This document shows positions 946 to 60,861 of a stretch of DNA of 64,000 nt, one piece after another. The stretch comes from Dokdonia sp. Dokd-P16 (GTDB lineage: Bacteria; Bacteroidota; Bacteroidia; Flavobacteriales; Flavobacteriaceae), in assembly GCF_003095655.1 (NCBI RefSeq), contig NZ_CP029151.1, forward strand, positions 577,501 to 641,500. The letters run 5' to 3'. The position numbers were made by a program, and so were the translations under genes. The number at the start of each line of letters is the position of its first letter. Within the stretch, counting starts at the first letter, position 1. The notes below the pieces were generated by a model. The model saw nothing but the letters and a program-made list of their open reading frames with translations, was not told the DNA's origin and made no database searches.

Positions 946-961
946 CGCTTTCGCGAAAGCG
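946..961. repeat. Dispersed palindrome, copy 1 (intergenic, rpsJ-rplC)
   Basis: A perfect palindrome cgctttcgcgaaagcg, extending symmetrically to 20 bp (944-963). It begins ten bases after the rpsJ stop codon. It is the first of 15 copies of this element in the window. Confidence 0.9.
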
Positions 962-971
962 TAAACATCTA

Positions 972-1277
972 TCACACCTTAATCTCTACCTCTACTCCAG
1001 ATGGTAATTCTAATTTCATCAAAGCATCAATAGTCTTTGAAGAGGAAGAATAGATATCAAGTAAACGCTTATAAGAGCTAAGCTCAAATTGCTCACGAGA
1101 TTTCTTGTTTACGTGTGGAGAACGTAATACAGTAAAGATTTTCTTATGTGTTGGAAGAGGAATAGGCCCTGTTACTACAGCTCCTGTTGTCTTCACAGTT
1201 CTTACAATTTTCTCAGCACTTTTATCTACTAAGTTGTGATCGTAAGATTTTAGTTTAATTCTAATTTTTTGACTCAT
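972..1277 (-). CDS. rpsJ: 30S ribosomal protein S10
   Basis: This encodes S10 (101 aa), a small-subunit head protein that in other bacteria also joins NusB in antitermination complexes. Diagnostic segments are the N-terminal [20 protein letters not shown] and [20 protein letters not shown] (about residues 39-58). The start is 11 nt downstream of the fusA stop, consistent with one transcript from rpsL onward. A copy of the dispersed palindrome follows its stop. Confidence 0.98.
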
Positions 1278-1288
1278 TTCCTTAGTAA

Positions 1289-4478: not shown

Positions 4479-6173
4479 TTGAAACTATTCTATCTATTTT
4501 TAATTATTTGCTTCGCCAGACACAATATGTCTGCACAAAAAAATGACGCAAGAATCCAACTAGAAGTAACAAGTAATATTCAATCAGAATCTACCATTCT
4601 AGATGACACATATTATAGGACGACATTTGAAGATAGACAGTCCGCATTAGACGAACTGAAAAACCTAAACACACAACTTCAAAATTTAGGATACCTAGAC
4701 AGCAGCTACGATCTAACTACACAAAGCGACACCTTATACATTGCTACTTTCCTTCTAGAAAAACCATATCCATACATAACTTTAAAAATCAAAAAACACG
4801 AAAACCTCGAGAGTTATATAAAACAGACAGGATATAAAATTAAAAATGACAGTATAACTATAGAGACCGCTTTCGCGAAAGCGTACTTAAAGAAACTAAG
4901 CTCCATTGCTTCAAACAACGGAAATCCTTTTGCAACGTTTCAAATAACCAACATCACAAAAACAACACAACACAATCTCATAGGATCACTTAAATCTTCT
5001 TTTGAAAAAAACAGGACAATTGATAGAATTGAAATAGAAGGTTACACGAATATCCCGAAAAGCTTTCTCAGACATAGTGTCAAATTAAAAGAGGGCGAAA
5101 TATTTAACCGCGATAAACTCGATAATCAAAGTAAAGACCTCTCCTACCTCCCTTTTGTAAATCAAATAAAAAATCCGCAAGTACTTTTTAATCCGGACAG
5201 CACAACAGTCTACCTATACTTAGAACGTAAGAATGCTAATAAATTTGATGGCTTTCTAGGCTTTGCAAATGAGGAAGACAATTCTTTTCGCTTAAATGGT
5301 TATCTCGACTTACTCCTTACCAACAACTTTAACTATGGAGAAACATTCATTTTAAATTACAAAGCAGATGGCGGCGATCAATCGCAGCTCCATTTAAAAA
5401 CCAAGCTACCCTACCTTTTCAAAAGTCCGCTAGGAATTGAAGCATCTCTCAACCTATTTAGAAAAGACAGCACATTTTCCACAACACAGCAGTCATTGGA
5501 TTTAGTCTATCAACTAAATCAAAAAAACCACCTTACTCTAGGGTACGAATCTGAACAATCAGAAAATCTTAATGACAATACAACTACTCAACTTATAAAT
5601 CTTGAAGACTTCACCTCTAAAAGACTAACAACATCATTTACACATCAAAATTTATCCACTAATTTATTTTTTCCTACAAAAAGACGTTTGCACTTTAGAG
5701 CTACTTTTGGAAATAGAGAAATCACAGAAAGCTTAGACAAACAAATATCCCTTACTGCTATACTAGAAAATGAATTTACCTTAAGCGATAAACACTCCAT
5801 ATTTGCAAAAAGCACCACACAATATTTAATCTCTAACAATTTCTTAACAAACGAGCTTTATCGTTTTGGGGGAATTTTAACTCTTAGAGGATTTGAAGAA
5901 AACAGTCTTTTAGCAAACCTTTACAACACCCTTAACACAGAATATAGATACAAATTAAATGAAGGGATCTACATCAACTCAATTTTAGATCTTGGATACC
6001 TTGAAAACAATATAGAGAAGACAAAACGAAAACTCTACAGTTTTGGCTTAGGCACTGGCATTCAGACGAAAACGGGAATACTAAAATTAAATATTGCAAA
6101 TGGTCTATTTGATAATCAAGAGTTTAGGTTTTCAGACACTAAACTCCATATAATTCTTGAAGTAAATTTCTAA
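4479..6173 (+). CDS. Omp85/TamA-like outer-membrane barrel protein
   Basis: A 564-aa exported protein that resembles the Omp85 (BamA/TamA) group. These insert or translocate proteins at the outer membrane. Residues 1-19 form a signal peptide ending near MSAQ. Residues about 180-255 look like a POTRA domain (IDRIEIEGYTNIPKSFLRHS, then a ligand of hydroxy-rich strands). The rest alternates amphipathic strands and contains the LRGFEENSL motif (about 468-476), equivalent to the conserved LRGF/Y barrel motif, and ends in phenylalanine. The start is TTG: an in-frame stop lies four codons upstream and the next ATG would cut through the signal peptide. A copy of the dispersed palindrome encodes TAFAKAY. 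Its exact substrate cannot be told. Confidence 0.75.
   Translation: MKLFYLFLIICFARHNMSAQKNDARIQLEVTSNIQSESTILDDTYYRTTFEDRQSALDELKNLNTQLQNLGYLDSSYDLTTQSDTLYIATFLLEKPYPYITLKIKKHENLESYIKQTGYKIKNDSITIETAFAKAYLKKLSSIASNNGNPFATFQITNITKTTQHNLIGSLKSSFEKNRTIDRIEIEGYTNIPKSFLRHSVKLKEGEIFNRDKLDNQSKDLSYLPFVNQIKNPQVLFNPDSTTVYLYLERKNANKFDGFLGFANEEDNSFRLNGYLDLLLTNNFNYGETFILNYKADGGDQSQLHLKTKLPYLFKSPLGIEASLNLFRKDSTFSTTQQSLDLVYQLNQKNHLTLGYESEQSENLNDNTTTQLINLEDFTSKRLTTSFTHQNLSTNLFFPTKRRLHFRATFGNREITESLDKQISLTAILENEFTLSDKHSIFAKSTTQYLISNNFLTNELYRFGGILTLRGFEENSLLANLYNTLNTEYRYKLNEGIYINSILDLGYLENNIEKTKRKLYSFGLGTGIQTKTGILKLNIANGLFDNQEFRFSDTKLHIILEVNF
4868..4883. repeat. Dispersed palindrome, copy 2 (inside the Omp85-like gene)
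   Basis: A perfect 16-bp copy, cgctttcgcgaaagcg, read as AFAKA in the host gene. Confidence 0.9.
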
Positions 6174-11784: not shown

Positions 11785-11819
11785 AAAAGGCTATCTAATT
11801 CTTTAGATAGCCTTTTTTT
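11785..11819 (+). terminator. Intrinsic terminator after SusCD locus 1
   Basis: A perfect 11-bp stem, aaggctatcta / tagatagcctt, with a 6-nt loop, followed by seven T. It ends the susC-susD-lipoprotein transcript. Confidence 0.9.
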
Positions 11820-11832
11820 ATTTGTTGCAAAT

Positions 11833-11848
11833 CGCTTTCGCGAAAGCG
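11833..11848. repeat. Dispersed palindrome, copy 3 (intergenic)
   Basis: A perfect 16-bp copy just after the terminator of SusCD locus 1. It is the last copy before a 16.5-kb stretch with none. Confidence 0.9.
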
Positions 11849-12195
11849 AAACAATGATCACTCAATTATAAACACAAAATATAAATTTAGAAATACCTCT
11901 ACCTATAAATTATAATCATTTTGAGAGCATTAAATCATTCGAATTCTAAATCCTTATTACTCTAAACAGAACACAATTACTGCTCTCAATATCATGAAAA
12001 TATAAAGCTATATGTTAAACAAAACTTATCATCAAATAGCTTAATGTTAAATTTTAAGAACTTTAATCACTCATTAAGAACTATTTAACACCTCTAATTG
12101 TTAAACAAATTTCATTAATATATCATTTTTGTTAAGACATTCCCAATTTCGTTAAAAGAGTATTAATTAGATTTCTTTATGACTTTATTTGGAAT

Positions 12196-12287
12196 GGCTA
12201 ATTCAAATAATTTATAAAAATGAAAACAAAGTTTAGTGGAATTTTAACGCTACTACTAGCGTTTGTAGTGCAAGTTTCGTTTGCACA
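12196..12287 (+). repeat. Shared susC leader and signal-peptide repeat, copy A
   Basis: A 92-bp stretch from 24 nt before the ATG to the end of the signal peptide matches 17336-17427 at 90 of 92 positions. The two differences are synonymous (Leu and Ser codons). Identity stops at the mature protein. Confidence 0.95.
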
Positions 12288-15200
12288 ATTAACAGTGACT
12301 GGAACGGTGAAAGACGACACCGGCGTACCACTTCCAGGAGCTAATGTCCTTTTAAAAGGAACAAATACAGGTACACAAACAGATTTTGACGGTAATTACT
12401 CCATAGAAGCAGAGCAAGGACAATCTCTTGTCTTTACTTATGTAGGTTTTACTGACCAAACTATATTGGTAGGCACTTCTTCTACTATTAATGTAACCTT
12501 AGCTGCTGGAGATGCTCTTGACGAGGTTGTGATTACTGCCTTAGGTATTTCTCGAGAGAAGAAATCCCTAGGTTACTCAACTCAAGAAGTTTCTGGTGAA
12601 GAAATTGCCGAGACTAGGAACCCAAATGCACTCAACTCGATTTCTGGTAAAGTAGCGGGTGTGCAAATTTCTAATGCTACCGGTAACCTTGGAGGCTCAA
12701 CACGAGTTGTAATTCGTGGTGCATCGTCAATCACAGGTGAAAACAGACCTCTTATTGTTGTAGATGGTATTCCGTTGGACAACACTAACTACAACTCTAC
12801 TTCAACCCAGTCTGGTGGTGGTGGTAGAGATTATGGTGATGCTGGTTTTGATATTAATCCGGATGACATTGCAACTATGAATGTTTTAAAAGGAGGACCT
12901 GCGGCAGCACTTTATGGATCTAGAGCCTTAAACGGTGTAATACTTATTACTACTAAATCTGGAAAAAAAGGAAGAGCTGAAGTTACAATAAACTCTGGTA
13001 TTACATTTGAAACTGTAAACATCCTTCCTAAAATCCAAAAATTATACGGAGGTGGTGCTGGAGATGCTAGTACTATTGGTCAAGCTGGGTTCAATCAAGC
13101 GACTATAAACGGAACTACGTATGACGTGGTAGATTATGGTACTGATGAGTCATGGGGACCAAGATTTGAAGGACAACAAGTACTACACTGGGATGCTTTT
13201 GACCCTGAGTTTGAAGATGATTTTCTTCAGACTCGCGCATGGTCTGCACCTAAAAACAATGTTGATTCTTTTTGGGATACTGGTGTTTCTTATAACAATG
13301 GAGTATCATTCTCACAAGGAACAGATAAATCAACAATGCGTTTGAGTGCTAACAATACTAGAACTGATGGAATCGTTCCAAATTCAAACTTGAGAAAAAA
13401 CTCTATTAACTTTAATGCAACTAGTCAGATATCTGATAAATTAAAAGTTGAAGCAATTGTAAATCTTACTATTACTGAAGGTTTTAACAGACCTGCTTCC
13501 GGTTATACTGGTGCGGGTGTTGTACAGCAGTTATATCAATTTGGACAGACTTCTCTTGACTACGGTCGCCTAAGAGATTACAAACTAGCTGATGGATCAC
13601 AAAGACCATGGAATAGAATTTCTGCTACAAATGGAAATCCAAGATATTCAGACAACCCTTATTGGACCTTGTATGAAAATACTGCAAATGACAAACGTAC
13701 TCGCTATTACGGAAATGTAGGAGCCACATATAATTTCACTGATGATTTATATGTTGTAGGAAAGGTATATGCAGACACGTATGATTTTAGAATTAATGAA
13801 AGAGTTGCTGTTGGTTCACAAGGTATAGCAAGTTACTCTGAGTCAGATCGTGACTTTGAAGAGATAAACTATGAAACTCGCGTACACTTTGACAAAAAAT
13901 TCTTAGACAACAAAATAAGCCTCAACTCTTTTGTAGGGGTTAACAGAAGAGATACAGAGCGTCATACGCTTTCTGCAGCAACTTCTGGAGGTCTTGTTGT
14001 TCCAGGACTTTACAATATAAGTAATTCTACAGATCCAGCTCAAGTTTCTGAATTTGACTCAAGAAAACGTGTAAATAGTGTTTTTGGATCTGTTTCTTTA
14101 GGGTATGATAATTTTGCTTATTTAACATTCACAGGAAGAAACGACTGGTCATCATCATTAGCAGAAGATAACCTATCATTCTTTTATCCAAGTATCAACG
14201 GTAGTTTTGTGTTTTCAGAATTCATAGAAGCAGATTGGCTTTCTTTTGGTAAGATTCGTGGAGGTTATGCAGAGGTAGGAAGTGATTCAGAGCCTTATCA
14301 ATTAATAACGCCCTTTTTTCCATCTATCCCATTTTTAGGCGATGTACCTTTCAGCACTTCCAATACTAGCCAAAATCCAAATCTTGAACCAGAATTTAAA
14401 AACAGTTACGAGGTTGGTTTAGAGATGGCATTTTTACAAAATCGTATTAGTTTTGATTTTACTTATTATAACGAAGAAACTACAAATCTCATAACACCAG
14501 TACAAGTAGATCCAGCAAGCGGATATCCAGCGACATTCACCAATGGAGGAAACTTACGTAATAGAGGTATTGAAGCGTTAGTTAACGCGACAATCATTCA
14601 AACTGAAAACTTTTCTTGGGACACAACATTTAACTTCTCAAAAAACAACAGTGAACTTATCGAACTACTACCTGGTATTGAATCATTACAAATCGCCAGT
14701 TTCCCGTTTAACTCTGTTACATTGAACGCTGTTGTGGGTGAACCTTATGGAGTTATTAGAGGGACAAACTTTGTTTTTGATGATCAAGGAAATAAAGTAG
14801 TTAATTCTAACGGAAGTTTTGCTGAAACTAGAGATCAAGAAAACTTAGGGTCTATATTACCAGACTTTAATTTAGGTATTAGAAATACGTTCCGTTATAA
14901 AAATCTAAGCCTAGGATTTCTAATTGATATCCAAGAGGGAGGAAAATACAGATCTCTTACAAATATTTGGGGTAATTACTCTGGTATTCTTGAACAAACA
15001 GCTACAGATAACAAACGTGAAGTGGGAACTGTTTTAGAAGGAGTTACGGGAACAGTAACCTATGATGAAAATGGAAATTATAGTGTTACAGACACTGTGG
15101 AAAACACACAAGTAATATCTGCTCAACAAGAGGGTACTGATTACTTTTTTGGACCAGATGCAGCAAATGTATTTGATGCAGATTATATTAAACTAAGAGA

Positions 15201-15423: not shown

Positions 15424-15427
15424 GAAA

Positions 15428-17359: not shown

Positions 17360-17427
17360 ATGAAAACAAAGTTTAGTGGAATTTTAACGCTATTACTAGC
17401 GTTTGTAGTGCAAGTTTCCTTTGCACA
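17336..17427 (+). repeat. Shared susC leader and signal-peptide repeat, copy B
   Basis: Partner of 12196-12287 (90 of 92 bases identical). It covers the last 24 nt of the leader and the signal-peptide codons of the third SusC. Confidence 0.95.
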
Positions 17428-20572: not shown

Positions 20573-20582
20573 AAAAAATATT

Positions 20583-22232: not shown

Positions 22233-22245
22233 ATAAAAACTTACA

Positions 22246-27344: not shown

Positions 27345-27366
27345 GCAGAAAATGATTATTTAAAAC

Positions 27367-28113: not shown

Positions 28114-28863
28114 ATCACCTTTTTCAGGTGTTTTATGTTCTTTAAACTCATAACTTATCACAATAGTTTCTGTTTCCTCATCTGGATCAATTTCTGGAGG
28201 TAACTCAAAAAAGTTTCCATTTTCATCAAACTGCTGCATGAATGGATCTTCATCTGACACATAATCGGGTTTTTCCCAGTTGTATGTGAGTGGTTTTGGC
28301 ACGCTTTCGCGAAAGCATAACGCAACCAATCCTCCGGCTATAAATCCAGATAAATGTCCTTCCCAAGATATAGTCTCACTAGTGGGAAGTGTTCCCCATA
28401 TCAGACTACCATAAAGAAAGACAACTATTAATGATAGTGCAATAAGTCGAAAGTGCTTTGCTAGGATTCCTTTAAAGAAGAGAAAAGAAACTAGCGCATA
28501 TATCACTCCGCTCATTCCGATATGGAAAGAGTCTCGACCTATTAACCAAGTACCTGTGCCGCTTAAAAGAACAAGAAGCAAAAGAACACGCCAAGATATT
28601 CTCCTATAAAAATAAAACAAGGCAGCACTTAGCACTAATAATGGAACAGTGTTGTGCCATAAATGTTTAATTCCAGAATGAATAAATGGTGAGAAAATCA
28701 CACCTCTTATTCCCGATACAGTACGCGGTTTTACACCCCACCTTGTGAAGTCTAACCCAAACTTTATTTCTACCCAAAATATGATCCACATCACGAGCAC
28801 AAATAACAATGGATACACTACGACCCCGTTATAAAACTTAAAATAATCTGCTTCTTTGTTCAT
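28108..28863 (-). CDS. Rhomboid-family intramembrane serine protease
   Basis: A 251-aa polytopic membrane protein. The rhomboid dyad is visible: GMSG (residues 116-119, Ser118) and His170 in WEGHLSGFIAG, together with the upstream HLWHN motif (67-71). About six hydrophobic segments span residues 14-190, followed by an acidic cytoplasmic tail. It cleaves membrane-spanning substrates; its target is not predictable. A copy of the dispersed palindrome encodes CFRES just after the last membrane segment. Confidence 0.92.
   Translation of the reverse strand: MNKEADYFKFYNGVVVYPLLFVLVMWIIFWVEIKFGLDFTRWGVKPRTVSGIRGVIFSPFIHSGIKHLWHNTVPLLVLSAALFYFYRRISWRVLLLLVLLSGTGTWLIGRDSFHIGMSGVIYALVSFLFFKGILAKHFRLIALSLIVVFLYGSLIWGTLPTSETISWEGHLSGFIAGGLVALCFRESVPKPLTYNWEKPDYVSDEDPFMQQFDENGNFFELPPEIDPDEETETIVISYEFKEHKTPEKGDL
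28302..28317. repeat. Dispersed palindrome, copy 4 (inside the rhomboid gene)
   Basis: A 14-bp core gctttcgcgaaagc (28303-28316) flanked by c and a. It is read as FRES in the host protein. Confidence 0.9.
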
Positions 28864-35084: not shown

Positions 35085-35798
35085 TTATAGAATGCCGTCA
35101 TCGGCAAAGCTAAAATACTGCTTTTCGGTCACAATAATATGGTCTAAGACTTGGATATCTAGACTCTGCGCAGCCGTTTTTAGTTTGGCCGTAAGTAACT
35201 TATCTGCCTGAGATGGTTTAAGAGTTCCAGAAGGGTGATTATGTCCTAAAATCATACCGACAGCACTGAGTTCTATAGCTGTTTTCATGACTAACCGCAC
35301 ATCAACTAATGTTCCCGTAAGTCCGCCTTTACTCACTTGTTCCTTGCGTAGCACCTTATTTGAATTATTTAAAAAAAGCACCCAGAATTCCTCATGACCA
35401 AGCTCTCCTATTATAGGTTGTAAAATTTGATAAGCATCTTTTGAGGAAGAAATACGCTTTCGCGAAAGCGTCTCTCCACCACTTCTCCTTCTCCCTAGTT
35501 CTAGCGCAGCAGCAATAGTAACTGCCTTTGCCTCTCCTATTCCTTTAAATTTCATTAAATCTTTTACCGAAAACTTACCTAGCTCTGAAAGATTATTCTC
35601 AGCTTGTGAGAGAATGCGCTTACTTAGTGCAACTGCGCTTTCTTCACGAGATCCAGAACTTATTAAAATAGCGATTAACTCTGCATCAGATAATACAGAT
35701 CGCCCTTTAATCATCAATTTCTCTCGGGGCCTATCATCTTCAGACCAATTTTTTATAGAAATATAGGAAGCTGCGTCTGTTGATGTTTTTATTGCCAT
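35085..35798 (-). CDS. radC: RadC/UPF0758-family JAB-domain protein
   Basis: A 237-aa protein with the N-terminal helix-hairpin-helix region (KFKGIGEAKAVTIAAALELG, about 72-91) and a JAB/JAMM metalloprotease-like domain with the motif LGHNHPSGTLKPSQAD (about 191-206). It is historically linked to DNA repair, but the biochemical role is unsettled. The dispersed palindrome encodes TLSRKR in the linker between the two domains. A -7-like TATATTTA lies close to its ATG. Confidence 0.93.
   Translation of the reverse strand: MAIKTSTDAASYISIKNWSEDDRPREKLMIKGRSVLSDAELIAILISSGSREESAVALSKRILSQAENNLSELGKFSVKDLMKFKGIGEAKAVTIAAALELGRRRSGGETLSRKRISSSKDAYQILQPIIGELGHEEFWVLFLNNSNKVLRKEQVSKGGLTGTLVDVRLVMKTAIELSAVGMILGHNHPSGTLKPSQADKLLTAKLKTAAQSLDIQVLDHIIVTEKQYFSFADDGIL
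35455..35470. repeat. Dispersed palindrome, copy 5 (inside radC)
   Basis: A perfect 16-bp copy, read as LSRKR between the helix-hairpin-helix and JAB domains. Confidence 0.9.
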
Positions 35799-36647: not shown

Positions 36648-37811
36648 ATGTTTTTAATAGATAAGCCATTTGCATCAGATTTTCTTATTGCGACTATAAA
36701 GGAAAATGACTATCCCATTATTGCAACTCCCGTGGCAAAGTCCATCGCTCAAGATGACACGCTTAACTGGATAGATGAGCAGGATGCGGTAGCTATTTAT
36801 AAAGATAATCCAGATACAACGCTATACTCTAACTCAGAAAATGCGTTAGTATGGATAGAACAGCACCTAGGAGATAGCACACTTGCTCGCCAGATAAATA
36901 TTTTAAAGGATAAAGTCCAGTTCAGAGAGCTTACTAAAAGCTTGTTTCCAGATTTTCATTTTCAAAAGCTTTCTCTAACTGATGTACATCTTCTAGATTC
37001 GGCTACCTTAAAATTTCCTTTTGTTATAAAACCCAGTGTTGGCTTTTTCAGTATAGGTGTTCATATCATTCAAGATCAAAACGACTGGGAGCAAGCAAAG
37101 AATGAGCTACACCCAGAGAAGCTCAAAAGTATTTTTCCTAAAAATGTACTGGACACCACATATTTCATTATTGAAGAATTTATTCAAGGAGAAGAATTTG
37201 CTATAGATTACTATCACAATGCAAACGGTGAGGTTGTTATTTTAAACATTTTACACCACCTATTTTCTTCTGGAAAGGACACTAGTGATCGCGTTTATTG
37301 CACCTCAAAAGAGATTATCACCATACATAGTGCTGCCATACATGAATTTCTAAACGCATTAGGACAAGAGTTACAACTCAAGAATTTTCCAGCACATGCA
37401 GAGATACGCATAGATGCTTCTGGAAAAATCACACCTATTGAGATTAATCCGCTGCGTTTTGGAGGATTTTGTACTACAGGCGACTCACTTGGTGTTACCG
37501 TAGATTTTAATTCTTATGTATGCTTTCGCGAAAGCAAAAAACCTAACTGGGACCACATATTTAAAGGCAAGGAAGATAAAGTCTTTAGCATTATCATACT
37601 AGATAATAGCACAGGCATCCCTGCCGAAGATATCAAAAGTTTTGACTACAAAAAGATAGCTGCAAAGTTTGAAAAACCAGTATTAGTAAGGCCACTAGAT
37701 ATACATAGCTATCCCGTATTTGGATTTATTTTTACAGAGACAAGCCTTGGTAATGAGCGCGAACTCACAGATATCTTAATTTCTGATTTAAAGGAATACG
37801 TTACTACATAA
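36648..37811 (+). CDS. ATP-grasp domain protein
   Basis: A 387-aa enzyme of the ATP-grasp superfamily, which couples ATP to carboxylate-amine or thiol ligation. The ATP-binding lysine region FPFVIKPSVGFFSIGVHII (about 124-142), the IIEEFIQGEEFAIDYY strand (about 178-193), and the metal-binding HAEIRIDASGKITPIEINPLR split over about 253-273 are visible. The specific ligase reaction cannot be assigned. It is probably co-transcribed with marC. A dispersed palindrome encodes CFRES. Confidence 0.82.
   Translation: MFLIDKPFASDFLIATIKENDYPIIATPVAKSIAQDDTLNWIDEQDAVAIYKDNPDTTLYSNSENALVWIEQHLGDSTLARQINILKDKVQFRELTKSLFPDFHFQKLSLTDVHLLDSATLKFPFVIKPSVGFFSIGVHIIQDQNDWEQAKNELHPEKLKSIFPKNVLDTTYFIIEEFIQGEEFAIDYYHNANGEVVILNILHHLFSSGKDTSDRVYCTSKEIITIHSAAIHEFLNALGQELQLKNFPAHAEIRIDASGKITPIEINPLRFGGFCTTGDSLGVTVDFNSYVCFRESKKPNWDHIFKGKEDKVFSIIILDNSTGIPAEDIKSFDYKKIAAKFEKPVLVRPLDIHSYPVFGFIFTETSLGNERELTDILISDLKEYVTT
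37522..37535. repeat. Dispersed palindrome, copy 6 (inside the ATP-grasp gene)
   Basis: A 14-bp core gctttcgcgaaagc, read as FRES. Confidence 0.9.
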
Positions 37812-40751: not shown

Positions 40752-40879
40752 GATTTTATATATTTATTGTTATTGATAAGGCAAATATGCAATTACACTT
40801 CCATTAATAAAACGAAGAATATAAATACAGTTACATATTATAACTTTATTACACATAAACGTATTAATGTGAAGGTATA

Positions 40880-40895
40880 CGCTTTCGCGAAAGCG
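40880..40895. repeat. Dispersed palindrome, copy 7 (intergenic)
   Basis: A perfect 16-bp copy, symmetric to 20 bp (40878-40897), in the divergent region between asnB and the DUF2911 gene. Confidence 0.9.
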
Positions 40896-41008
40896 TACTT
40901 CTAAAACATTTTGAAAGTTTTAGCACTTTTGTGAGACTTACAACATAACTTTGAAGGAGCCTTGAGAGCTATTTCAAGACTAATTAACTCTAAAACAATA
41001 TTACTATT

Positions 41009-42164: not shown

Positions 42165-43424
42165 TTATGTTTTTTGCTTTTTCTTGCGTGCTGCTGGAAA
42201 CAGTACATTATTTAAGATCAAACGATAACCAGGCGAGTTAGGATGTAGTTCTAATTCTGTCTTAGGATCACCTACTCTGTGCTGGTAATCTTCTGGATCG
42301 TGACCTCCATAAAAGGTAAAAAATCCTTTTCCTTTAATCCCGTGAATGTATCTCGCCTCACCATTTGTAAGATTTTCTCCCATTACTAGCACATTAGACT
42401 TGATAGTTTCTGGATCATAACTCGTAGTCTGTCCCATAAAGCCTTTTACAAGAGCCGTATGATTTTGACAAAGCATCGTAGGAATAGGATCCCATTTTGC
42501 ACTATAATCTTTTAAGGTAAAGTAATCTGTTTGAAAAGGAATCTTACGTTTACTCGTCATATCTATAGATGAAAACTCGTATGTAGTAGGAGAACGTTCT
42601 AGACTATAGTTTTTGAAAGCAAATGTTTTCTGGAAGTCTATTTTTGAAGTATATCCTGGTTCGCTAGGATCTCCGTCAAACATTGGTTCACAAATATCTA
42701 CTCCCTCAGCAGAGAGCGCAATATCAAAACTATCTGTCGCGCTACACATTGCAAACATAAAACCACCTCCCACAACATAGTCACGTATTTTAAGAGCTAC
42801 ATCGCCTTTCTCCTTAGATACTTTATCGTAACCTAATTTGGCAGCAAGTGCTTCGGCTGCTTTTTTCTCTTCTATATACCAAGGCGCGGCGCGGTAGGAT
42901 CCATAAAATTTTCCAAACTGTCCTGTAAAATCTTCATGGTGTAGGTGCAACCAGTCGTATAAAATAAGCTGGTCACTCAGTACTTCTGTATCGTAAATAG
43001 TAGTGTAAGGAATCTCTGCATAAGTAAGCACCATGGTCACGGCATCATCCCAAGGCACTTTACTGTCTGGTGTGTACACGGCAATTTTTGGCGCTTTTTC
43101 TAGCACTACAGCTTCCATATTTTGAGAAGGACTCGCTATTTCCGTAAGAATTTGTTCCGTTTGTCCGTCTGATAATACTTCATATGAAACACCACGTATA
43201 GTGCACTCTCTGCGTACCTCTTCGGTATCTGGCAGTAAAAATGAGCCGCCTCTATAGTTAAGCAACCACTTTACTTTTTGGTTTTTATCAAGTGACCAGT
43301 ATGTAATTCCATATGCTTTAAGATGCTCCCTTTGTGTCTCTATATCCATAGGTATGAGGATATATGAAGCTTTCGCGAAAGCGAAATTCAATATCAAAAA
43401 GGATAAAATAAGTAGTTTCTTCAT
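42165..43424 (-). CDS. Exported protein, often labelled 'asparagine synthetase B', function unclear
   Basis: A 419-aa exported protein (ATG at 43424 chosen over a TTG two codons upstream). The signal peptide MKKLLILSFLILNFAFAKAS contains a dispersed-palindrome copy, read as AFAKA. The body has AVYTPDSKVPWDDAVTMVLTY, YDWLHLHHEDFTGQF and a GGFMFAMCSATDSFDIAL segment that recalls glutamine-amidotransferase-like folds (a Cys in a turn after a hydrophobic strand). It lacks the N-terminal Cys2 domain and the SGGLDSS loop of real AsnB. Related flavobacterial proteins carry the AsnB label, which looks wrong here. Operon partner of the DUF922 protein. Confidence 0.7.
   Translation of the reverse strand: MKKLLILSFLILNFAFAKASYILIPMDIETQREHLKAYGITYWSLDKNQKVKWLLNYRGGSFLLPDTEEVRRECTIRGVSYEVLSDGQTEQILTEIASPSQNMEAVVLEKAPKIAVYTPDSKVPWDDAVTMVLTYAEIPYTTIYDTEVLSDQLILYDWLHLHHEDFTGQFGKFYGSYRAAPWYIEEKKAAEALAAKLGYDKVSKEKGDVALKIRDYVVGGGFMFAMCSATDSFDIALSAEGVDICEPMFDGDPSEPGYTSKIDFQKTFAFKNYSLERSPTTYEFSSIDMTSKRKIPFQTDYFTLKDYSAKWDPIPTMLCQNHTALVKGFMGQTTSYDPETIKSNVLVMGENLTNGEARYIHGIKGKGFFTFYGGHDPEDYQHRVGDPKTELELHPNSPGYRLILNNVLFPAARKKKQKT
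43369..43382. repeat. Dispersed palindrome, copy 8 (inside a signal-peptide coding region)
   Basis: A 14-bp core gctttcgcgaaagc, read as AFAKA at the end of a signal peptide. Confidence 0.9.
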
Positions 43425-43505
43425 TGTCAATTTTATAACGTTGAATTTACGGAATTGTTATGACAAGAAAGGTGCCACAAAACATCCTGATGGAATCATA
43501 AAATA

Positions 43506-45621: not shown

Positions 45622-45655
45622 AGCTACGAAAGTAAATAAATAGTTATGCGAGATA

Positions 45656-45671
45656 CGCTTTCGCGAAAGCG
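45656..45671. repeat. Dispersed palindrome, copy 9 (just upstream of dnaB)
   Basis: A perfect 16-bp copy, symmetric to 20 bp (45654-45673), 35 nt before the dnaB start. Confidence 0.9.
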
Positions 45672-45733
45672 TAGTACTCACAGGTCATTAACAATTGAAC
45701 TGTTAATAACTAGAAAATATTGTTAATAAGGGT

Positions 45734-50002: not shown

Positions 50003-51238
50003 TTAAAACAACGTAATTACATACCAGATGCTGAAGCCTAACAAAGCAATTATACTCACAATACTAAGCAAATCCATGCCTTTAGAGAGCCTCGCTTCTC
50101 TAGGAATACTTTCGTCCTTGAAAGATAAATAATTACAAATGGCATAGAACGGAGCCGTAAGAAAAGATAATATGGTCGCCACTTTCACAAGAGCTCCCAT
50201 CTCGCTTATTAAGAAAAATAATGTCCCACAGGTTCCAAGAATTAAGACGATAAGATAAAACAAGTACCCTCGTTTTTTAAAACCAAAACCTAATAATGAG
50301 GTGGTAGCTTCTAGCGCTCTAGGAGACGCATCTAATGTAGTAAGTGTGGTGCTAAAAATTGTTGTAAATGCCGCCACACCAATAAGCAGGCTTGCCCAAT
50401 CTCCCAGACTTGCTGTATACATATTGATAAGTTGGCCTGCAAAAACACCTCCCTTTGGAGAAAAAGTCTCCCCACTACCAAACATTACTAATGCCCCTAA
50501 GGTCATGAAGCAGATACCTAATACAATTGCCCCAGCATACCCAATATTAAAATCAAAAATTGAATTGCGCATTGCATCCTTACCCGTATCTCTTTTTTCT
50601 AGTGTCCATAATGAATGCCATATAGAAATATCAAGTGGCGCTGGCATCCATCCCATAAAAGCAATCAGAAATGCCACAGCCGCTCCTTCGGTTGGTATAA
50701 TTTGGAGCAAGTTTGCCGGAGTTCCCATTCCTTGAATAATTACGCTTTCGCGAAAAGCAAAAAAGACAGCCACCAGCGTACTTATAGTGAGTGTGATAAT
50801 AATCACCTTCATTAGTTTATCGAGAATCCTATACTTACCTATGGCTAGTATTGCAGCACACAGTATTGTAATTGCGACACTCCATATCGCTACGTCATTA
50901 GTAATACCAAAAAGCTGAACAGCAATTCCTGCAGTTACAATGGTTACTGCTGTCTGAATAGTAAACATAGTAGCTAGTGTCAAAAAGAAATAAACCCACA
51001 AAACAGGCTTACCTAATTTCATATAGCCAACTAGCAAACTATTTCCAGTTGCCGAGGCATACCTAGGTCCAAACTGGAAGAATGGATATTTTATAATGTT
51101 TACGAGGATCAAAGCCCAGAGGAGACCAAAGCCAAAATCGGCGCCTGCTCTAGTGCTCTGTACAAGATGAGAAACCCCAATAGCAGCACCAGCAAATAAT
51201 AATCCTGGTCCTAACTTTTTAAAGGGTATAGCTTTCAA
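50003..51238 (-). CDS. NRAMP-related transporter with altered metal-site motifs
   Basis: A 411-aa membrane protein with about eleven helices. The N-terminus KLGPGLLFAGAAIGVSHLVQ aligns with helix 1 of NRAMP/MntH metal transporters, but the metal-binding DPGN motif is replaced by GVSH. In helix 6 the MPH motif appears as MPAP (FMGWMPAPLDISIW). The family relation is clear from the overall pattern, yet transport of Mn or Fe by the known site is doubtful. A dispersed-palindrome variant encodes AFRES. Its ATG overlaps the sigma-factor stop by 4 nt. Confidence 0.85.
   Translation of the reverse strand: MKAIPFKKLGPGLLFAGAAIGVSHLVQSTRAGADFGFGLLWALILVNIIKYPFFQFGPRYASATGNSLLVGYMKLGKPVLWVYFFLTLATMFTIQTAVTIVTAGIAVQLFGITNDVAIWSVAITILCAAILAIGKYRILDKLMKVIIITLTISTLVAVFFAFRESVIIQGMGTPANLLQIIPTEGAAVAFLIAFMGWMPAPLDISIWHSLWTLEKRDTGKDAMRNSIFDFNIGYAGAIVLGICFMTLGALVMFGSGETFSPKGGVFAGQLINMYTASLGDWASLLIGVAAFTTIFSTTLTTLDASPRALEATTSLLGFGFKKRGYLFYLIVLILGTCGTLFFLISEMGALVKVATILSFLTAPFYAICNYLSFKDESIPREARLSKGMDLLSIVSIIALLGFSIWYVITLF
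50743..50758. repeat. Dispersed palindrome, copy 10 (variant, inside the NRAMP-like gene)
   Basis: cgctttcgcgaaaagc keeps the TTTCGCGAAA core but carries one extra A in the right arm. Confidence 0.75.
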
Positions 51239-51804
51239 TTATCTTCTGTTTTAATTACATCTGCGAGTAATCTGCGAGCTCGTAGAAGCTTCACTTTTAC
51301 ATTACTCATAGGTTCTTCAAGATGCTCTGCCATTTCTTTATAGCTCATTTCTTGAAAGTAACGCAAATTAATGATTTCTTGATAATGAGGCTTTAAAGTT
51401 TTAATGTACGCTAGTAATTCAGATAAATTCTGCTCTTTTATGAGTACATCTTCTGGAGAAGGGTTTAAGTCGGCAACTTTCTTTACTCGCTCGTCATCAC
51501 GATCAGAGATCTGAGATCTTATAGAAGACTCTTTTTTCCTAATAATATCAATGTGTATATTTTTTGATATCGTAATTAACCATGTAGCAAATCTATACTC
51601 TTCTTTATAGGTATCTATTTTTGAAAAGGCTTTTGAAAACGTCTGGATGGTAATATCCTCAGCGTCGTAAGCATTTTTAGTACGCTTGAGCTGGAAGCCA
51701 TACACCTCACTCCAAAAGGAATTGAGCAAGAAATTGAAAGCACTTTGCTTTCCTTCTTTTGCTCGGGATATTTCTAAAATAATTTTTTCGGGGGTTACTT
51801 CCAC
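51235..51804 (-). CDS. ECF-type RNA polymerase sigma factor
   Basis: A 189-aa sigma-70-family factor. Region 2 includes AYDAEDITIQTFSKAFSKID and FATWLITISKNIHIDIIRKK (about 45-98); region 4 includes IINLRYFQEMSYKEMAEHLE and NVKVKLLRARRLL (about 143-178). The start is GTG. It overlaps the glycosyltransferase upstream by 10 nt and the NRAMP-like gene downstream by 4 nt, so all three are translationally coupled. No anti-sigma gene is adjacent. Confidence 0.92.
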   Translation of the reverse strand: MEVTPEKIILEISRAKEGKQSAFNFLLNSFWSEVYGFQLKRTKNAYDAEDITIQTFSKAFSKIDTYKEEYRFATWLITISKNIHIDIIRKKESSIRSQISDRDDERVKKVADLNPSPEDVLIKEQNLSELLAYIKTLKPHYQEIINLRYFQEMSYKEMAEHLEEPMSNVKVKLLRARRLLADVIKTEDN

Positions 51805-52910
51805 CGTGTAGGTTTTGTGATAAGGTTACTGATAAAGATACTCATTTGCACACATACCAACGTAATCTCGTAAATAGGGTATAAATAAGTCAAATCTTTT
51901 TCTTGTAAACGCGTAGCGCTACAACCTACCGTAATCCATGAACATAAATAACGTACACCAATAATGAGCGCTACCCACTGCCAGTTAAACTGAGTTACAA
52001 GAAGTGCAACCGCTCCTACTAAGAACAAACACTGACTTATATAAAAAAGCGCTAGCAATGATTTCTCAAGAAATTTATAGTGCGCTGCAGTGCTTATGTG
52101 TCTACGCTTTTGAGTTATCCAACTTGCAAAAGTTTTCTTAGGGGTAGAAATTGTAAATGATTCTGGAGAAAACTGTATCGCTGTATTCTTTCGTGTGCTT
52201 GCCTCGTTCACAAATAAATCATCATCACCACTTTGAATTTTAATGTGGTTGATAAATCCTTTTTGCTCATAAAAAACATCTGAGGTATACGCTAGGTTAC
52301 GACCTACGCCCATGTAAGGTCTACCCGCTTTTGCCCAACTAAAATATTGTAAGGCAGTCATCAAAGTTTCAAATCTTATGAGCTTGTTAATCCAGGATCC
52401 TTTAATTTTCTCATAAGCACCATAACCTAACACAATTTCCTTTTCTTCACTAAAGGAGGAAGCCACGTGCTGCAGCCAGTGATTTGATGCTGGAACACAA
52501 TCTGCATCTGTAAATAACATGTGCTTATGCTGCGCTCGTTTTATTCCAAGCGTAAGTGCGTATTTTTTATTACCCCAAAAAGTTTCATTATTCACCACAT
52601 TTACTTGCTGCACATTAGTATTGGCTAGTTTAAATGCTTCCATTATATCTTCTGTATCATCAGAAGATGCATCATTAATTAAAATAACTTCAAATTCTGG
52701 ATAGTCTTGAGATAGTATTTTTGGAATATTTTTTTGAAGATTTGCCGACTCGTTTTTGGCACAAATAATTACAGAAACTGGAGGAAGCGAACTTGTATTG
52801 GTATTAGAAATTTTCGCGAAAGCGAATAACCAATAGAAAACATAAAAAGTCACGTTAATAAACGTGACTCCTATAAATATATAAAAAAGTAGTGTAAAAA
52901 TGTGTTCCAA
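51795..52910 (-). CDS. Family 2 glycosyltransferase, membrane-bound
   Basis: A 371-aa processive-type glycosyltransferase. One N-terminal membrane segment (about 4-31) precedes the GT-A domain, with VSVIICAKNESANL (45-58), VILINDASSDDTEDI (75-89), the DxD motif in FTDADCVP (134-140) and a QxxRH-like SWITQKRRH (about 258-266). C-terminal hydrophobic segments follow. The start is TTG, 12 nt after the stop of the small membrane protein before it. A dispersed-palindrome variant codes FAFAK next to the first membrane segment. Sugar and acceptor unknown. Confidence 0.88.
   Translation of the reverse strand: MEHIFTLLFYIFIGVTFINVTFYVFYWLFAFAKISNTNTSSLPPVSVIICAKNESANLQKNIPKILSQDYPEFEVILINDASSDDTEDIMEAFKLANTNVQQVNVVNNETFWGNKKYALTLGIKRAQHKHMLFTDADCVPASNHWLQHVASSFSEEKEIVLGYGAYEKIKGSWINKLIRFETLMTALQYFSWAKAGRPYMGVGRNLAYTSDVFYEQKGFINHIKIQSGDDDLFVNEASTRKNTAIQFSPESFTISTPKKTFASWITQKRRHISTAAHYKFLEKSLLALFYISQCLFLVGAVALLVTQFNWQWVALIIGVRYLCSWITVGCSATRLQEKDLTYLYPIYEITLVCVQMSIFISNLITKPTRWK
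52811..52824. repeat. Dispersed palindrome, copy 11 (variant, inside the glycosyltransferase gene)
   Basis: ttttcgcgaaagcg keeps the TTTCGCGAAA core and the right arm; the left arm is decayed. Confidence 0.75.
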
Positions 52911-55171: not shown

Positions 55172-55200
55172 AAAGCCCCATGCGAGTGGGGCTTTTTTTT
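55172..55200 (+). terminator. Intrinsic terminator after the fasciclin gene
   Basis: A 9-bp stem aaagcccca / tggggcttt with a 6-nt loop and eight T. Confidence 0.92.
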
Positions 55201-55201
55201 A

Positions 55202-55216
55202 CGCTTTCGCGAAAAA
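55202..55216. repeat. Dispersed palindrome, copy 12 (variant, intergenic)
   Basis: cgctttcgcgaaaaa keeps the left arm and core; the right arm is changed. It starts directly after the terminator T run. Confidence 0.75.
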
Positions 55217-55243
55217 GGGATAGACTACAAAACGTAGAAATAG

Positions 55244-57525: not shown

Positions 57526-57594
57526 AATGTATTTTTCTTTATACAAAAATGCGGAATTTATTGGTGTTTTTAAAGCGCGTGCAAGGGTATTTTA

Positions 57595-57608
57595 CTTTCG
57601 CGAAAGCG
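57595..57608. repeat. Dispersed palindrome, copy 13 (intergenic)
   Basis: ctttcgcgaaagcg retains the complete 12-bp core; the outer left base pair is lost. It lies between the aminotransferase and DUF1573 genes. Confidence 0.85.
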
Positions 57609-57611
57609 CAT

Positions 57612-57639
57612 AAAAAAAGACCGCCATTACGACAGTCTT
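57612..57639 (-). terminator. Intrinsic terminator after the DUF1573 gene
   Basis: On the minus strand aagactgtc / ggcggtctt (with two wobble pairs) is followed by seven T. Confidence 0.75.
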
Positions 57640-58048: not shown

Positions 58049-58188
58049 AATTTTAAATATTTGAGGGATTTCAAATGTAACTACAAATTAAACACCTGCC
58101 AAGAATGATATTAACATTAACATGGTGCGCTACTGTATATGTGTGCCAAAAATAGCACTTTGTCTACACAATAATCCTACTGTTATCC

Positions 58189-58196
58189 CTACTTTT
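58189..58196 (+). promoter_or_regulatory. -7 box of valS
   Basis: TACTTTTG fits TAnnTTTG and lies 31 nt before the valS ATG. A TTTG at 58158-58161 is too far for the usual spacing, so the -33 element is unclear. Confidence 0.5.
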
Positions 58197-58227
58197 GCTT
58201 ACTTTAAGACAATAATCAGACCAAACT

Positions 58228-60861
58228 ATGAGTATAGCATCAAAATATGATTCTACCCAAGTAGAAGACAAGTGGTACAGCTACTGGATGGAACATAATT
58301 ACTTCCATTCTACACCAGACAATAGAGAACCGTATACAATCGTGATACCTCCTCCTAACGTAACTGGCGTCTTACACATGGGACATATGCTTAACAACAC
58401 GATTCAAGACGTTTTAGTGCGCCGTGCTCGACTGTTAGGAAAAAATGCTTGCTGGGTACCTGGAACAGATCACGCCTCTATTGCTACAGAGGCAAAGGTA
58501 GTTGCACGTCTTAAAGAACAAGGCGTAAAAAAATCTGATCTTACTCGTGAGGAGTTTCTTGCGCATGCATGGGAGTGGAAAGAAGAGTATGGTGGCGTAA
58601 TCCTAGATCAGCTTAAAAAGCTCGGAGCTTCATGCGATTGGGAACGCACTGCCTTTACAATGGATCCAGCAATGTCTGAGTCTGTTATAAAGACCTTTGT
58701 AGATCTTTATGACAAAGGTCTTATATACCGTGGCTACCGCATGGTAAACTGGGATCCAGAAGCAAAAACTACACTTTCTGACGAGGAAGTAATACATGAA
58801 GAACGCCAAGGACTTCTATATTACCTTAACTATAAACTAGAAGGCTCTGATGAAACGTTAACGATTGCCACAACACGTCCAGAAACTATTTTTGGCGACA
58901 CTGCTATATGCATTAACCCTACAGACGAACGCTTTACACACCTCAAAGGAAAGAAAGCAATTGTACCTATAAGTGGTCGTGTGATTCCTATTATAGAAGA
59001 TGAGTATGTAGATCTTGAATTTGGAACAGGATGCCTAAAGGTTACTCCTGCACACGACGAGAATGACAAAATGCTGGGCGATAAACATAAGCTTGAAGTA
59101 ATAGACATCTTTAATGATGACGCTTCTCTTAACAGCTTCGGACTTCATTACGAAGGTCAAGATCGTTTTGAATGTCGTAAGAATATTAAAAAAGAACTTG
59201 AAGAAATAGGTGCTCTAGTAAAAACAGAGAACCACATTAATAAAGTAGGAACATCAGAACGCACAAAGGCCGTAATTGAGCCTAGACTATCTGACCAGTG
59301 GTTCCTTAAAATGGAAGAGCTTGTAAAACCTGCCATAAAAGCTGTGCTTGAAACTGGCGAGGTAAAGTTATTTCCTAAAAAGTTTGAAAACACCTACCGT
59401 CACTGGATGGAGAACATACGTGACTGGAATATCTCTCGCCAGTTATGGTGGGGACAGCAAATTCCTGCTTACTTCTATGGAGAGGGAAAAGAGGATTTTG
59501 TAGTTGCCGAAAGTATGGAGGATGCTGTTACGCTTTCGCGAAAGCGTACCGGAAACGATTCCCTCACTGCTGCAGATTTACGTCAAGACGAAGATGCAAT
59601 GGACACTTGGTTCAGCTCATGGTTATGGCCTATGAGTGTTTTTGACGGAGTACGCAATCCAGACAACGAAGAGTTTAACTACTACTACCCTACAAATGAT
59701 CTTGTTACGGGACCAGATATTTTATTTTTCTGGGTAGCGCGTATGATCATTGCTGGATATGAGTACACAGATAAAAGACCTTTCCAGAATGTTTACCTGA
59801 CAGGTCTAGTACGTGACAAGCAGCGTCGCAAGATGTCTAAGTCACTAGGTAACTCACCAGATGCACTAGAGCTCATCAAAGAATACGGGGCAGATGGTGT
59901 ACGTGTAGGACTACTATTGAGTAGTGCCGCAGGTAACGACCTTATGTTTGACGAAGATTTACTTAAGCAAGGAAAAGGATTCATCAAGAAAAACTTAAGT
60001 GCCTTCAGCCTTATTCAAGGTTGGGAAATAGACGAGACCATATCACAACCTGCACACAGCGCACAAGGTTTAGAATGGTACACTAACCGTTTTAATCAGA
60101 CGCTTGTTGAGATAGAAGACCACTTCTCAAAATATAGAATTTCTGACGCTTTGATGGCGAGTTACAAACTCGTATGGAATGACTTCTGTGGTTGGTTACT
60201 AGAGATTATCAAGCCAGCATACCAACAACCTATTGATCGTAAGACGTATGATGCAGTAATTGCAGCATTTGAAAACAACCTACGTATACTTCATCCATTT
60301 ATCCCTTTTGCATCTGAAGAGATCTGGCAGACAATCGCCACACGTACTCCAGAAGAAGCGCTAATTATCAATAAATGGCCAGAAGGAGGCGAAGTAAACG
60401 AGCAAATCATTGCAGATTTTGACTACGCTACACAAGTTGTTTCAGGAATAAGAACGATAAGAAAAAGTAAGAACATAGCTTTTAAAGATCAGATAGAATT
60501 ACATCTTCTAAGCAATGAGAAAGCATCATCAGACTATGATGGCATCATCTCGAAGTTAGGGAATGTGAGTGAGATCGCTTTCGCGAAAGCGCCACTAGAC
60601 GGAGCATTATCCTTTAGAGTAAAATCTAATGAGTACTTCATACCACTTGCAGGCGCTATTGATGTAGAGGCCGAAGTTGCAAAAATTGAGGAAGAACTCA
60701 AATACACGAAAGGCTTCCTTATATCTGTTTCTAAGAAACTATCAAATGAACGCTTTGTAAGCAATGCACCAGAAAAGGTGGTTGAGATCGAAAAGCAAAA
60801 GATGGCAGATGCCGAAGCAAAAATTGAGGCTTTAGAAAAACGTCTTACTAGTTTGACTTAG
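58228..60861 (+). CDS. valS: Valine--tRNA ligase
   Basis: An 877-aa class I synthetase that charges tRNA-Val. The HIGH-type motif is HMGHM at 50-54 (PPPNVTGVLHMGHM), with the WVPGTDHASIATEAK segment after it. The editing domain spans about 190-340 (TIATTRPETIFGDTAI, TPAHDEND). The KMSKS motif RRKMSKSLGN is near residue 535. Anticodon-binding and C-terminal coiled-coil (VEAEVAKIEEELKYTKGFL) regions follow. Two dispersed palindromes lie in the gene: one codes TLSRKR (about 434-439) before the DTWFSSWLWP motif, the other AFAKA (about 783-788). Confidence 0.97.
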   Translation: MSIASKYDSTQVEDKWYSYWMEHNYFHSTPDNREPYTIVIPPPNVTGVLHMGHMLNNTIQDVLVRRARLLGKNACWVPGTDHASIATEAKVVARLKEQGVKKSDLTREEFLAHAWEWKEEYGGVILDQLKKLGASCDWERTAFTMDPAMSESVIKTFVDLYDKGLIYRGYRMVNWDPEAKTTLSDEEVIHEERQGLLYYLNYKLEGSDETLTIATTRPETIFGDTAICINPTDERFTHLKGKKAIVPISGRVIPIIEDEYVDLEFGTGCLKVTPAHDENDKMLGDKHKLEVIDIFNDDASLNSFGLHYEGQDRFECRKNIKKELEEIGALVKTENHINKVGTSERTKAVIEPRLSDQWFLKMEELVKPAIKAVLETGEVKLFPKKFENTYRHWMENIRDWNISRQLWWGQQIPAYFYGEGKEDFVVAESMEDAVTLSRKRTGNDSLTAADLRQDEDAMDTWFSSWLWPMSVFDGVRNPDNEEFNYYYPTNDLVTGPDILFFWVARMIIAGYEYTDKRPFQNVYLTGLVRDKQRRKMSKSLGNSPDALELIKEYGADGVRVGLLLSSAAGNDLMFDEDLLKQGKGFIKKNLSAFSLIQGWEIDETISQPAHSAQGLEWYTNRFNQTLVEIEDHFSKYRISDALMASYKLVWNDFCGWLLEIIKPAYQQPIDRKTYDAVIAAFENNLRILHPFIPFASEEIWQTIATRTPEEALIINKWPEGGEVNEQIIADFDYATQVVSGIRTIRKSKNIAFKDQIELHLLSNEKASSDYDGIISKLGNVSEIAFAKAPLDGALSFRVKSNEYFIPLAGAIDVEAEVAKIEEELKYTKGFLISVSKKLSNERFVSNAPEKVVEIEKQKMADAEAKIEALEKRLTSLT
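59531..59546. repeat. Dispersed palindrome, copy 14 (inside valS)
   Basis: A perfect 16-bp copy, read as LSRKR in a variable loop of ValS. Confidence 0.9.
60576..60591. repeat. Dispersed palindrome, copy 15 (inside valS)
   Basis: A perfect 16-bp copy, read as AFAKA in the C-terminal part of ValS, about 1 kb from copy 14. Confidence 0.9.

What the first reader, a model, noticed from the sequence alone, without database searches (positions are those of the whole stretch)
946..60591. A 16-bp palindrome dispersed 15 times through the window
The core TTTCGCGAAA, usually extended to cgctttcgcgaaagcg and sometimes to 20 bp, occurs near 946, 4868, 11833, 28302, 35455, 37522, 40880, 43369, 45656, 50743, 52811, 55202, 57595, 59531 and 60576. 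In random sequence a 14-mer should occur far less than once in 64 kb. It is not part of a larger repeat: flanks differ at each copy. It resembles the short, highly repeated palindromes of some cyanobacteria (HIP1-like) more than REP or transposon-derived elements. It might bind a nucleoid protein, carry a methylation mark (TCGCGA centre) or serve in chromosome organisation or DNA uptake.
Basis: partly seen in the sequence, partly recalled or inferred. Interest (0 to 1): 0.85.

Follow-up and report, generated by a model that had tools for sequence, protein, structure and literature searches.

The report
A 50-bp palindrome repeated genome-wide
Some marine bacteria (Dokdonia and two other lineages) and viruses that may infect such hosts keep many evenly spaced copies, about a thousand per Dokdonia chromosome, of one 50-base palindromic DNA site whose centre natural selection holds nearly unchanged; none of the known kinds of DNA signal compared here fits it, so it may mark or manage the cell's own DNA in a way not yet described.

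Summary
The genome (Dokdonia, Flavobacteriaceae, 3.62 Mb) holds 556 perfect 16-mers and an estimated 1,060 cores TTTCGCGAAA.

The unit is a ~50-bp dyad, not 16 bp: the core plus a 20-nt arm on each side. Each strand's 5' arm is C-poor and G/T-rich. A change-point fit puts the outer edge at -20 in three genera separately. Copies are spaced more evenly than chance, are enriched between genes, and look DNA-level rather than RNA-level. The core changes at 1 of 1,110 aligned positions against a 10% background.

The motif is dense in Dokdonia and two other lineages. Several genera show only an excess of imperfect copies, read as relics. It also occurs in copper-resistance islands of other genera and in phage contigs; 24 related phage loci (238 kb) have none.

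Three DNA-methyltransferase families are absent from this genome, and none of four is in every motif-bearing genome tested. ParB is unchanged. The binding protein was not found.

My best guess is a bidirectional self-DNA control site working like Chi. Rivals are a topology or packing site and an uptake sequence. HIP1, Chi and DUS each fail at least one defining feature.

The parts
929..978 (.). 50-bp dyad element 1, core 949-958; between ORFs, near the elongation-factor-G gene
4851..4900 (.). element 2, core 4871-4880; inside a TTG-start ORF 4479-6173 (true start uncertain)
11816..11865 (.). element 3, core 11836-11845; intergenic
28285..28334 (.). element 4, core 28305-28314; inside a rhomboid-family gene
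35438..35487 (.). element 5, core 35458-35467; inside a RadC-family gene
37504..37553 (.). element 6, core 37524-37533; inside an ATP-grasp gene
40863..40912 (.). element 7, core 40883-40892; intergenic
43351..43400 (.). element 8, core 43371-43380; near the start of a TTG-start ORF 42165-43430 (start uncertain)
45639..45688 (.). element 9, core 45659-45668; near the start of a GTG-start ORF 44065-45681 (start uncertain)
50726..50775 (.). element 10, core 50746-50755; inside an Nramp-family gene
52792..52841 (.). element 11, core 52812-52821; probably just upstream of the gene listed as 51795-52910 (flanks carry indels between species)
55185..55234 (.). element 12, core 55205-55214; intergenic
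57576..57625 (.). element 13, core 57596-57605; intergenic
59514..59563 (.). element 14, core 59534-59543; inside the valyl-tRNA synthetase gene; core intact in all 15 aligned Dokdonia rows, same register in 3 loci of genus g11, shifted 2 nt in g210; 19 of 108 aligned rows in all
60559..60608 (.). element 15, core 60579-60588; inside the valyl-tRNA synthetase gene; core intact in 12 of 15 Dokdonia rows and in none of the other 93

Best explanation
Shown: an estimated 1,060 copies of a ~50-bp dyad-symmetric DNA site (20-nt C-poor, G/T-rich 5' arm, core TTTCGCGAAA, mirror arm), whose core is kept in place far beyond neutral expectation, spaced more evenly than chance, and present in phage contigs and islands as well as in the chromosome. 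Inferred: it works at the DNA level and a lineage-specific protein, probably a dimer, recognises it. Most likely mechanism, inferred and not shown: a bidirectional control site for the machinery that degrades and recombines DNA. It would work like Chi but be readable from either side because it is palindromic. It would tell a translocating nuclease/helicase that the DNA is self, with the 20-nt keto-rich strand next to it favouring loading of a strand-exchange protein. The host would need such sites every few kb for repair, and phages would need them to survive and recombine. When a lineage loses the system the sites decay.
For: Selection: all aligned sites shared between Dokdonia genomes at 87-93% identity (15 of 15, 14 of 14, 13 of 13; neutral odds 1e-6, 2e-5, 9e-9 under uniform divergence); core divergence 1 of 1,110 against 10.1% background. 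Same arm architecture, with a fitted edge at -20 in G000, g11 and g210 separately, and C-poor arms in 47 unique viral-contig sites. DNA level: C-poor arms in both gene senses and in divergent intergenic spacers. Even spacing: 3.8% of gaps under 500 bp against 16% simulated. Phages: motif-bearing contigs carry portal, capsid and terminase genes, with one site kept in all three and another in two of three contigs at 65-68% protein identity, while 24 capsid relatives (238 kb) have none. Loss and decay: excess of near matches in some genera only.
Against: No cognate protein was found and no recombination enzyme was tested. Known Chi sites are short and not palindromic (recalled), and a 20-nt arm is not a feature of them (recalled). 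Single bases of the outer arm are not conserved (8-10% divergence at -7 to -20), and only A-to-C change is clearly rarer in arms (2 of 813 against 31 of 2,456); T-to-C is similar and G-to-C is not lower. Divergence shows no gradient within 2 kb of a site, so no local recombination signal is visible between species. Stretches without copies are tolerated (0 copies in 20 kb at 90-110 kb). The phage contigs were picked by carrying the motif, and their hosts are not known.
Confidence: 0.35

Rival explanations
1. A chromosome-packing or DNA-topology site: a dedicated nucleoid protein, or a preferred type II topoisomerase site, bound every few kb. The 50-bp dyad would be its footprint, with contacts every half helical turn.
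For: Dyad with information dips at -10, -16 and -21/-22, about half a turn apart; similar density along the chromosome, including both GC-skew switch regions; even spacing; DNA level.
Against: Such sites are usually degenerate (recalled), whereas this core is nearly invariant. Strand asymmetry of the arms (G/T against A/C) is not a usual bending signal (recalled). Phages would have to share the need. ParB, the one partitioning protein tested, is unchanged.
Confidence: 0.25
2. A DNA uptake sequence of naturally transformable cells, spread by biased uptake and recombination.
For: About 1,000 copies per genome, even spacing and excess outside genes; lineage-specific; site positions conserved; motif-bearing DNA appears in islands of other genera; singly mismatched cores are in excess, 58 against 18.3, as reported for uptake sequences.
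Against: Known uptake sequences are not palindromes (PMC1939737, passages). Only 18 of the 58 one-mismatch cores have a recognisable frame, beside 253 perfect ones. Phage contigs keep the motif. Competence was not tested.
Confidence: 0.2
3. A methylation target maintained together with an orphan DNA methyltransferase, as proposed for HIP1.
For: Palindromic core with a TCGCGA centre; PF02384 matches in 12 of 13 motif-bearing genomes.
Against: G000 has 0 matches to PF00145, PF01555 and PF02086; the g210 genome has 0 to PF00145, PF02086 and PF02384 and 1 to PF01555; no family is in all motif-bearing genomes tested. A 50-bp unit is far longer than a usual methyltransferase site (recalled). Only four families were tested.
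Confidence: 0.05
4. A mobile or selfish short element that inserts copies of itself.
For: Many copies; found also in islands and phage contigs.
Against: No clean insertion among the closest pairs compared: sites are shared, and the single difference at 94% identity is one point mutation. Copies differ in their arms.
Confidence: 0.03
5. An RNA-level signal (hairpin, processing or termination site) in transcripts.
For: The core could fold as an RNA hairpin; density is highest in convergent spacers (1.65 per kb against 0.93-1.17).
Against: Arms of the same copy are no more complementary than shuffled pairs (z between -1.6 and 0.0). The 3' side is A-rich, not T-rich. Arm bias is the same in divergent spacers and present in both gene senses.
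Confidence: 0.03

Closest known systems
HIP1 (GCGATCGC) of cyanobacteria
   Same: Perfect palindrome, highly iterated genome-wide, lineage-specific, inside and between genes.
   Different: Different sequence; a nearly invariant 10-bp core plus ordered outer bases and 20-nt arms; lower density; no methyltransferase family of four tested present in all carriers; found also in phage contigs.
Chi sites (RecBCD/AddAB control sites)
   Same: About one per 3-4 kb, useful to phages (recalled), keto-rich neighbouring strand (recalled).
   Different: Chi is short and directional (recalled); this is a long dyad with arms of fixed length. No enzyme link shown.
DNA uptake sequences (DUS/USS) of Neisseriaceae and Pasteurellaceae
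   Same: About 1,000 copies, lineage-specific, excess outside genes, some excess of singly mismatched forms.
   Different: Palindromic; few recognisable near-perfect copies; kept in phage contigs.
parS / Noc-binding / SlmA / matS chromosome sites
   Same: Palindromes of about this length bound by dimers (recalled).
   Different: About 1,000 copies and no regional limit seen; ParB unchanged in motif-bearing genomes.

Membership tests
Highly iterated palindrome (HIP class) | Perfect palindrome over-represented genome-wide | tested here: met
   253 cores against 0.8-3.8 expected in 864 kb; 556 16-mers in the genome
HIP1 | Sequence GCGATCGC or a listed variant | tested here: not met
   Core is TTTCGCGAAA
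HIP1 | Accompanied by an orphan DNA methyltransferase recognising the centre | tested here: inconclusive
   No family of four present in all motif-bearing genomes tested; three absent from G000; PF02384 in 12 of 13; other families and actual specificities untested
DNA uptake sequence | Non-palindromic core (PMC1939737 passages) | tested here: not met
   Core is a perfect palindrome
DNA uptake sequence | Singly mismatched forms over-represented (PMC1939737 passages) | tested here: inconclusive
   58 against 18.3 expected in G000, 7 against 3.3 in g11, 13 against 4.0 in g210; only 18 of the 58 in a recognisable frame
DNA uptake sequence | Raises uptake of DNA by competent cells | not testable with these tools
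   Needs transformation assays
Chi site | Short directional (non-palindromic) sequence (recalled) | tested here: not met
   Perfect dyad, 10-16 bp plus arms
Chi site | Alters nuclease and recombination activity of RecBCD/AddAB | not testable with these tools
   Needs biochemistry
ParB/parS | ParB with altered or extra specificity | tested here: not met
   One ParB match in 9 of 10 motif-bearing genomes (G010 has a second, longer one); no alignment column cleanly separates motif-bearing from motif-free genomes, one does so weakly
REP/transposon-derived repeat | Part of a larger mobile repeat or inserted as a unit | tested here: not met
   Sites shared and uninterrupted in close relatives
Nucleoid/topoisomerase site | Binds such a protein in vivo | not testable with these tools
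   Needs pull-down or ChIP

The most novel reading that the evidence does not exclude
A new class of self-DNA mark: a 50-bp dyad that replicons living in these hosts (chromosome, islands, phages) carry every few kb, read by an undiscovered protein, partly independently placed in different lineages, and decaying when the system is lost.
Probability: 0.4. Interest if true: 0.92.

Novelty: new variant of a known kind. Interest (0 to 1): 0.76.

Why it matters
What highly iterated palindromes do is still an open question; the passages I saw of the HIP paper give no settled function for HIP1 (PMC4390886). This system makes the question testable. The motif is long and unambiguous and the unit has a fitted edge. 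Dense, relic-like and empty lineages exist for a gene-content comparison, and phage contigs with and without the motif form a natural contrast. If the self-DNA reading holds, it would add a new way in which cells and their phages negotiate what counts as own DNA. The C-poor arms alone are a constraint that a specialist would probably not predict.

Tried and rejected
ParB as the binder: same protein, no cleanly separating residue. ParB domain scores of the best match run slightly lower in motif-bearing genomes (108.9-115.4 against 113.7-120.5 bits), but no column explains it.

Methyltransferases: no family in all carriers; PF02384 comes closest (12 of 13).

Autoregulated gene beside close motif pairs: 10 proteins beside pairs spaced 101-449 bp; 8 gave families with no obvious role in site-specific DNA binding, 2 gave none.

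Other palindromes with the same pattern in other genera: a few weak ones in the fetched loci, none convincing; G184, G082 and G116 stretches show imperfect copies, not a dialect.

Hairpin or RNA reading disfavoured.

Recombination gradient around sites: none within 2 kb; in most of the five pairs divergence is higher beyond 2-4 kb, which I put down to accessory regions.

Early reading corrected: one-mismatch copies looked like background against composition controls; with a masked order-3 Markov model there is a real excess (58 against 18.3, 30 of them at core positions 3 and 8).

The best change point is -20 in all three genera, but a weak skew remains at -24 to -21 in G000, and the edge contrast in g210 alone has p = 0.057.

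Rows dropped: 8 of the 41 viral stretches, all above 48% GC, were left out of the 47-site count; their arms are mostly not C-poor and I take them for chance matches. 2 of 253 copies lay too near a stretch end to classify.

Named phage isolates and plasmids: a 30-base query gave only chance-level matches.

Papers: searches showed no description of the motif. I saw listings only. The 10 papers holding the decamer and the 25 listed of 199 holding TTCGCGAA were judged by title and not opened; none of those listed held the 12-mer or longer. The library lacks most subscription journals, so earlier mention is possible.
Full report
What was checked. The 15 cores TTTCGCGAAA are all present. The window is part of a single-contig 3,623,447-bp genome, and the perfect 16-mer CGCTTTCGCGAAAGCG occurs there 556 times with 0 for the reversed control. 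The nearest named relative of the window's valyl-tRNA synthetase is Dokdonia sp. MAG-19 at 96%. That contig's length equals that of contig C192 of G002, a genome of the window's own genus, so I take the genus to be Dokdonia.

Distribution. The 17 other genomes of the genus hold 138-711 16-mers. Among 397 Flavobacteriaceae genomes, 80 have at least one 14-mer, but only 6 are dense: two Dokdonia (808 and 857), three of genus g11 (578, 664, 609) and one of genus g210 (408). The rest have 0-19. In 395 genomes drawn from the phylum, 22 have a match, and none outside the family has more than one.

The unit is about 50 bp. In 504 arms from 864 kb of the genome, C is 4-13% over positions -20 to -5 of each 5' arm while G and T rise. 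A change-point fit on base composition puts the outer edge at -20 in G000 (502 arms), g11 (114) and g210 (42) separately, and in the pool by a wide margin. G against C differs between -20..-17 and -24..-21 with p = 2e-9, 3e-11 and 0.057; a weak skew (0.20) remains just outside the edge in G000. In 47 unique viral-contig sites C is 10% at -20..-5 against 17% at -30..-21. The weakest positions, -10, -16 and -21/-22, are about half a helical turn apart. The two arms of one copy are no more alike than shuffled arms, so this is not a hairpin. Arms are C-poor for coding copies on both sides (7% and 11%), for intergenic copies (7%) and in divergent spacers (6%), which points to action as DNA.

Where the copies sit. 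Of 251 copies classified with a simple ORF caller, 128 are in ORFs and 123 between them, though ORFs cover 86.8% of the bases. Density per kb of spacer is 1.05 and 1.17 between same-strand genes, 0.93 in divergent and 1.65 in convergent spacers. Counts in 40 stretches of 20 kb have mean 5.95 and variance 3.54. Gaps under 500 bp make up 3.8% of 213 against 16.0% in 1,000 Poisson simulations (lowest 7.9%). Density is similar along the chromosome, apart from poor stretches: 0 copies at 90-110 kb, and 2 at 720-740 kb, which holds a type I restriction system.

Selection. Between Dokdonia genomes the aligned sites are shared: 15 of 15 with G006 (91.4% identity), 14 of 14 with G012 (92.7%), 13 of 13 with G008 (86.7%). 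G016 and G003 (94%) share 20 of 21, the exception being a single point mutation; G000 and G016 share 8 of 9. Over more distant Dokdonia genomes some sites are lost. Over eight non-independent comparisons the core differs at 1 of 1,110 positions against 10.1% background. The outer arm bases diverge at 8-10%, near background, so there it is composition rather than sequence that recurs; of the changes to C only A-to-C is clearly rarer in arms (2 of 813 against 31 of 2,456), T-to-C is similar and G-to-C is not lower. Assuming uniform neutral divergence, the odds of full retention are 1e-6, 2e-5 and 9e-9. In valyl-tRNA synthetase the core at 59534 is found in 19 of 108 aligned rows: all 15 Dokdonia rows (one contig appears twice), three g11 loci in the same register, and g210 shifted by two nucleotides; the other 89 lack it. 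The core at 60579 is in 12 of 108, all Dokdonia. Across orthologous coding regions most sites differ between genera, and a few coincide: g11 1 shared, 1 own, 9 Dokdonia-only; g210 1 shared, 3 Dokdonia-only; both shared ones are in the same register. The motif can therefore override protein sequence, and its placement is partly shared and partly independent.

Loss. Near matches (up to 2 mismatches) exceed the reversed control in g164 (86 against 20, 74 against 10), G082 (69 against 8), g96 (41 against 5, 38 against 15), G091 (39 against 7) and G361 (29 against 10). In the other motif-poor genomes of that call the excess is small or absent. G184 stretches show a few imperfect copies, some with C-poor arms. 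I read these as relics of a lost system.

Mobile DNA and phages. In several motif-poor genera most of the few copies examined lie together in a related island that in the locus annotated here encodes copper resistance (efflux pump, multicopper oxidase, P-type ATPase). No copy of it was found in the Dokdonia, g11 and g210 stretches searched, the window not among them. In the 2.9-million-contig viral collection, 41 stretches carry the 16-mer, including contigs with portal, capsid and terminase genes; 8 high-GC stretches look like chance. These contigs were picked for the motif. As a control, 24 loci with a capsid protein 46-58% identical to one of them (238,147 bases) have none, and the related named phage Peternella_1 has none. 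Within the motif-bearing group, one site is kept in all three contigs and another in two of three at 65-68% protein identity. Hosts of these contigs are not known.

What it is not. Methyltransferase families PF00145, PF01555 and PF02086 have no match in G000. PF02384 is in 12 of 13 motif-bearing genomes, absent from that of g210. ParB is unchanged. One-mismatch cores number 58 against 18.3 expected, 18 of them in a recognisable frame; uptake sequences are described as non-palindromic with singly mismatched forms over-represented (PMC1939737, passages only), so the first feature fails and the second is partly met. HIP-class sequences are described at 1,000-2,000 per Mb (PMC4390886, passages only), against about 290 per Mb here.

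Mechanism. The evidence supports a DNA-level, protein-read site useful to any replicon in the host. Among machines that treat chromosome and phage alike, recombination and nuclease control fits best in my judgement, with topology second and uptake third. The keto-rich strand next to the core would suit loading of a RecA-type protein (recalled preference). None of this is shown, and the binding protein was not found.

Noticed in passing
L083-L090, L092, L093, L097, L101 (other Flavobacteriaceae genera): A conserved island (copper-resistance genes in L085/L086) carries the motif in genera that otherwise have few copies; two copies exactly 933 bp apart, in an outer-membrane efflux gene in L085, recur in several genera.
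   Followed up: partly
G000 contig 90001-110000 (L238): A 20-kb stretch with no motif copy, lower GC (33%) and widely spaced ORFs; looks recently acquired.
   Followed up: partly
G000 contig 720001-740000 (L148): Type I restriction-modification genes with a Z1-domain protein and a Schlafen/AlbA_2 protein in a motif-poor stretch.
   Followed up: partly
window 11846-28304: A 16.5-kb gap without motif over TonB-dependent receptor genes; possibly acquired DNA.
   Followed up: no
L075 (Chryseobacterium angstadtii): AAAGCTTT occurs 11 times in 22.6 kb against 0.7 expected; unexplained.
   Followed up: no
L301 (G010) and L302 (G184): A second ParB-domain match in a 616-aa open frame, besides the normal ParB.
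   Followed up: no
L123, L349-L351, L353-L357: Motif-bearing phage contigs related to Winogradskyella phage Peternella_1, whose record lists transposase genes and a Mu-like neck protein.
   Followed up: partly
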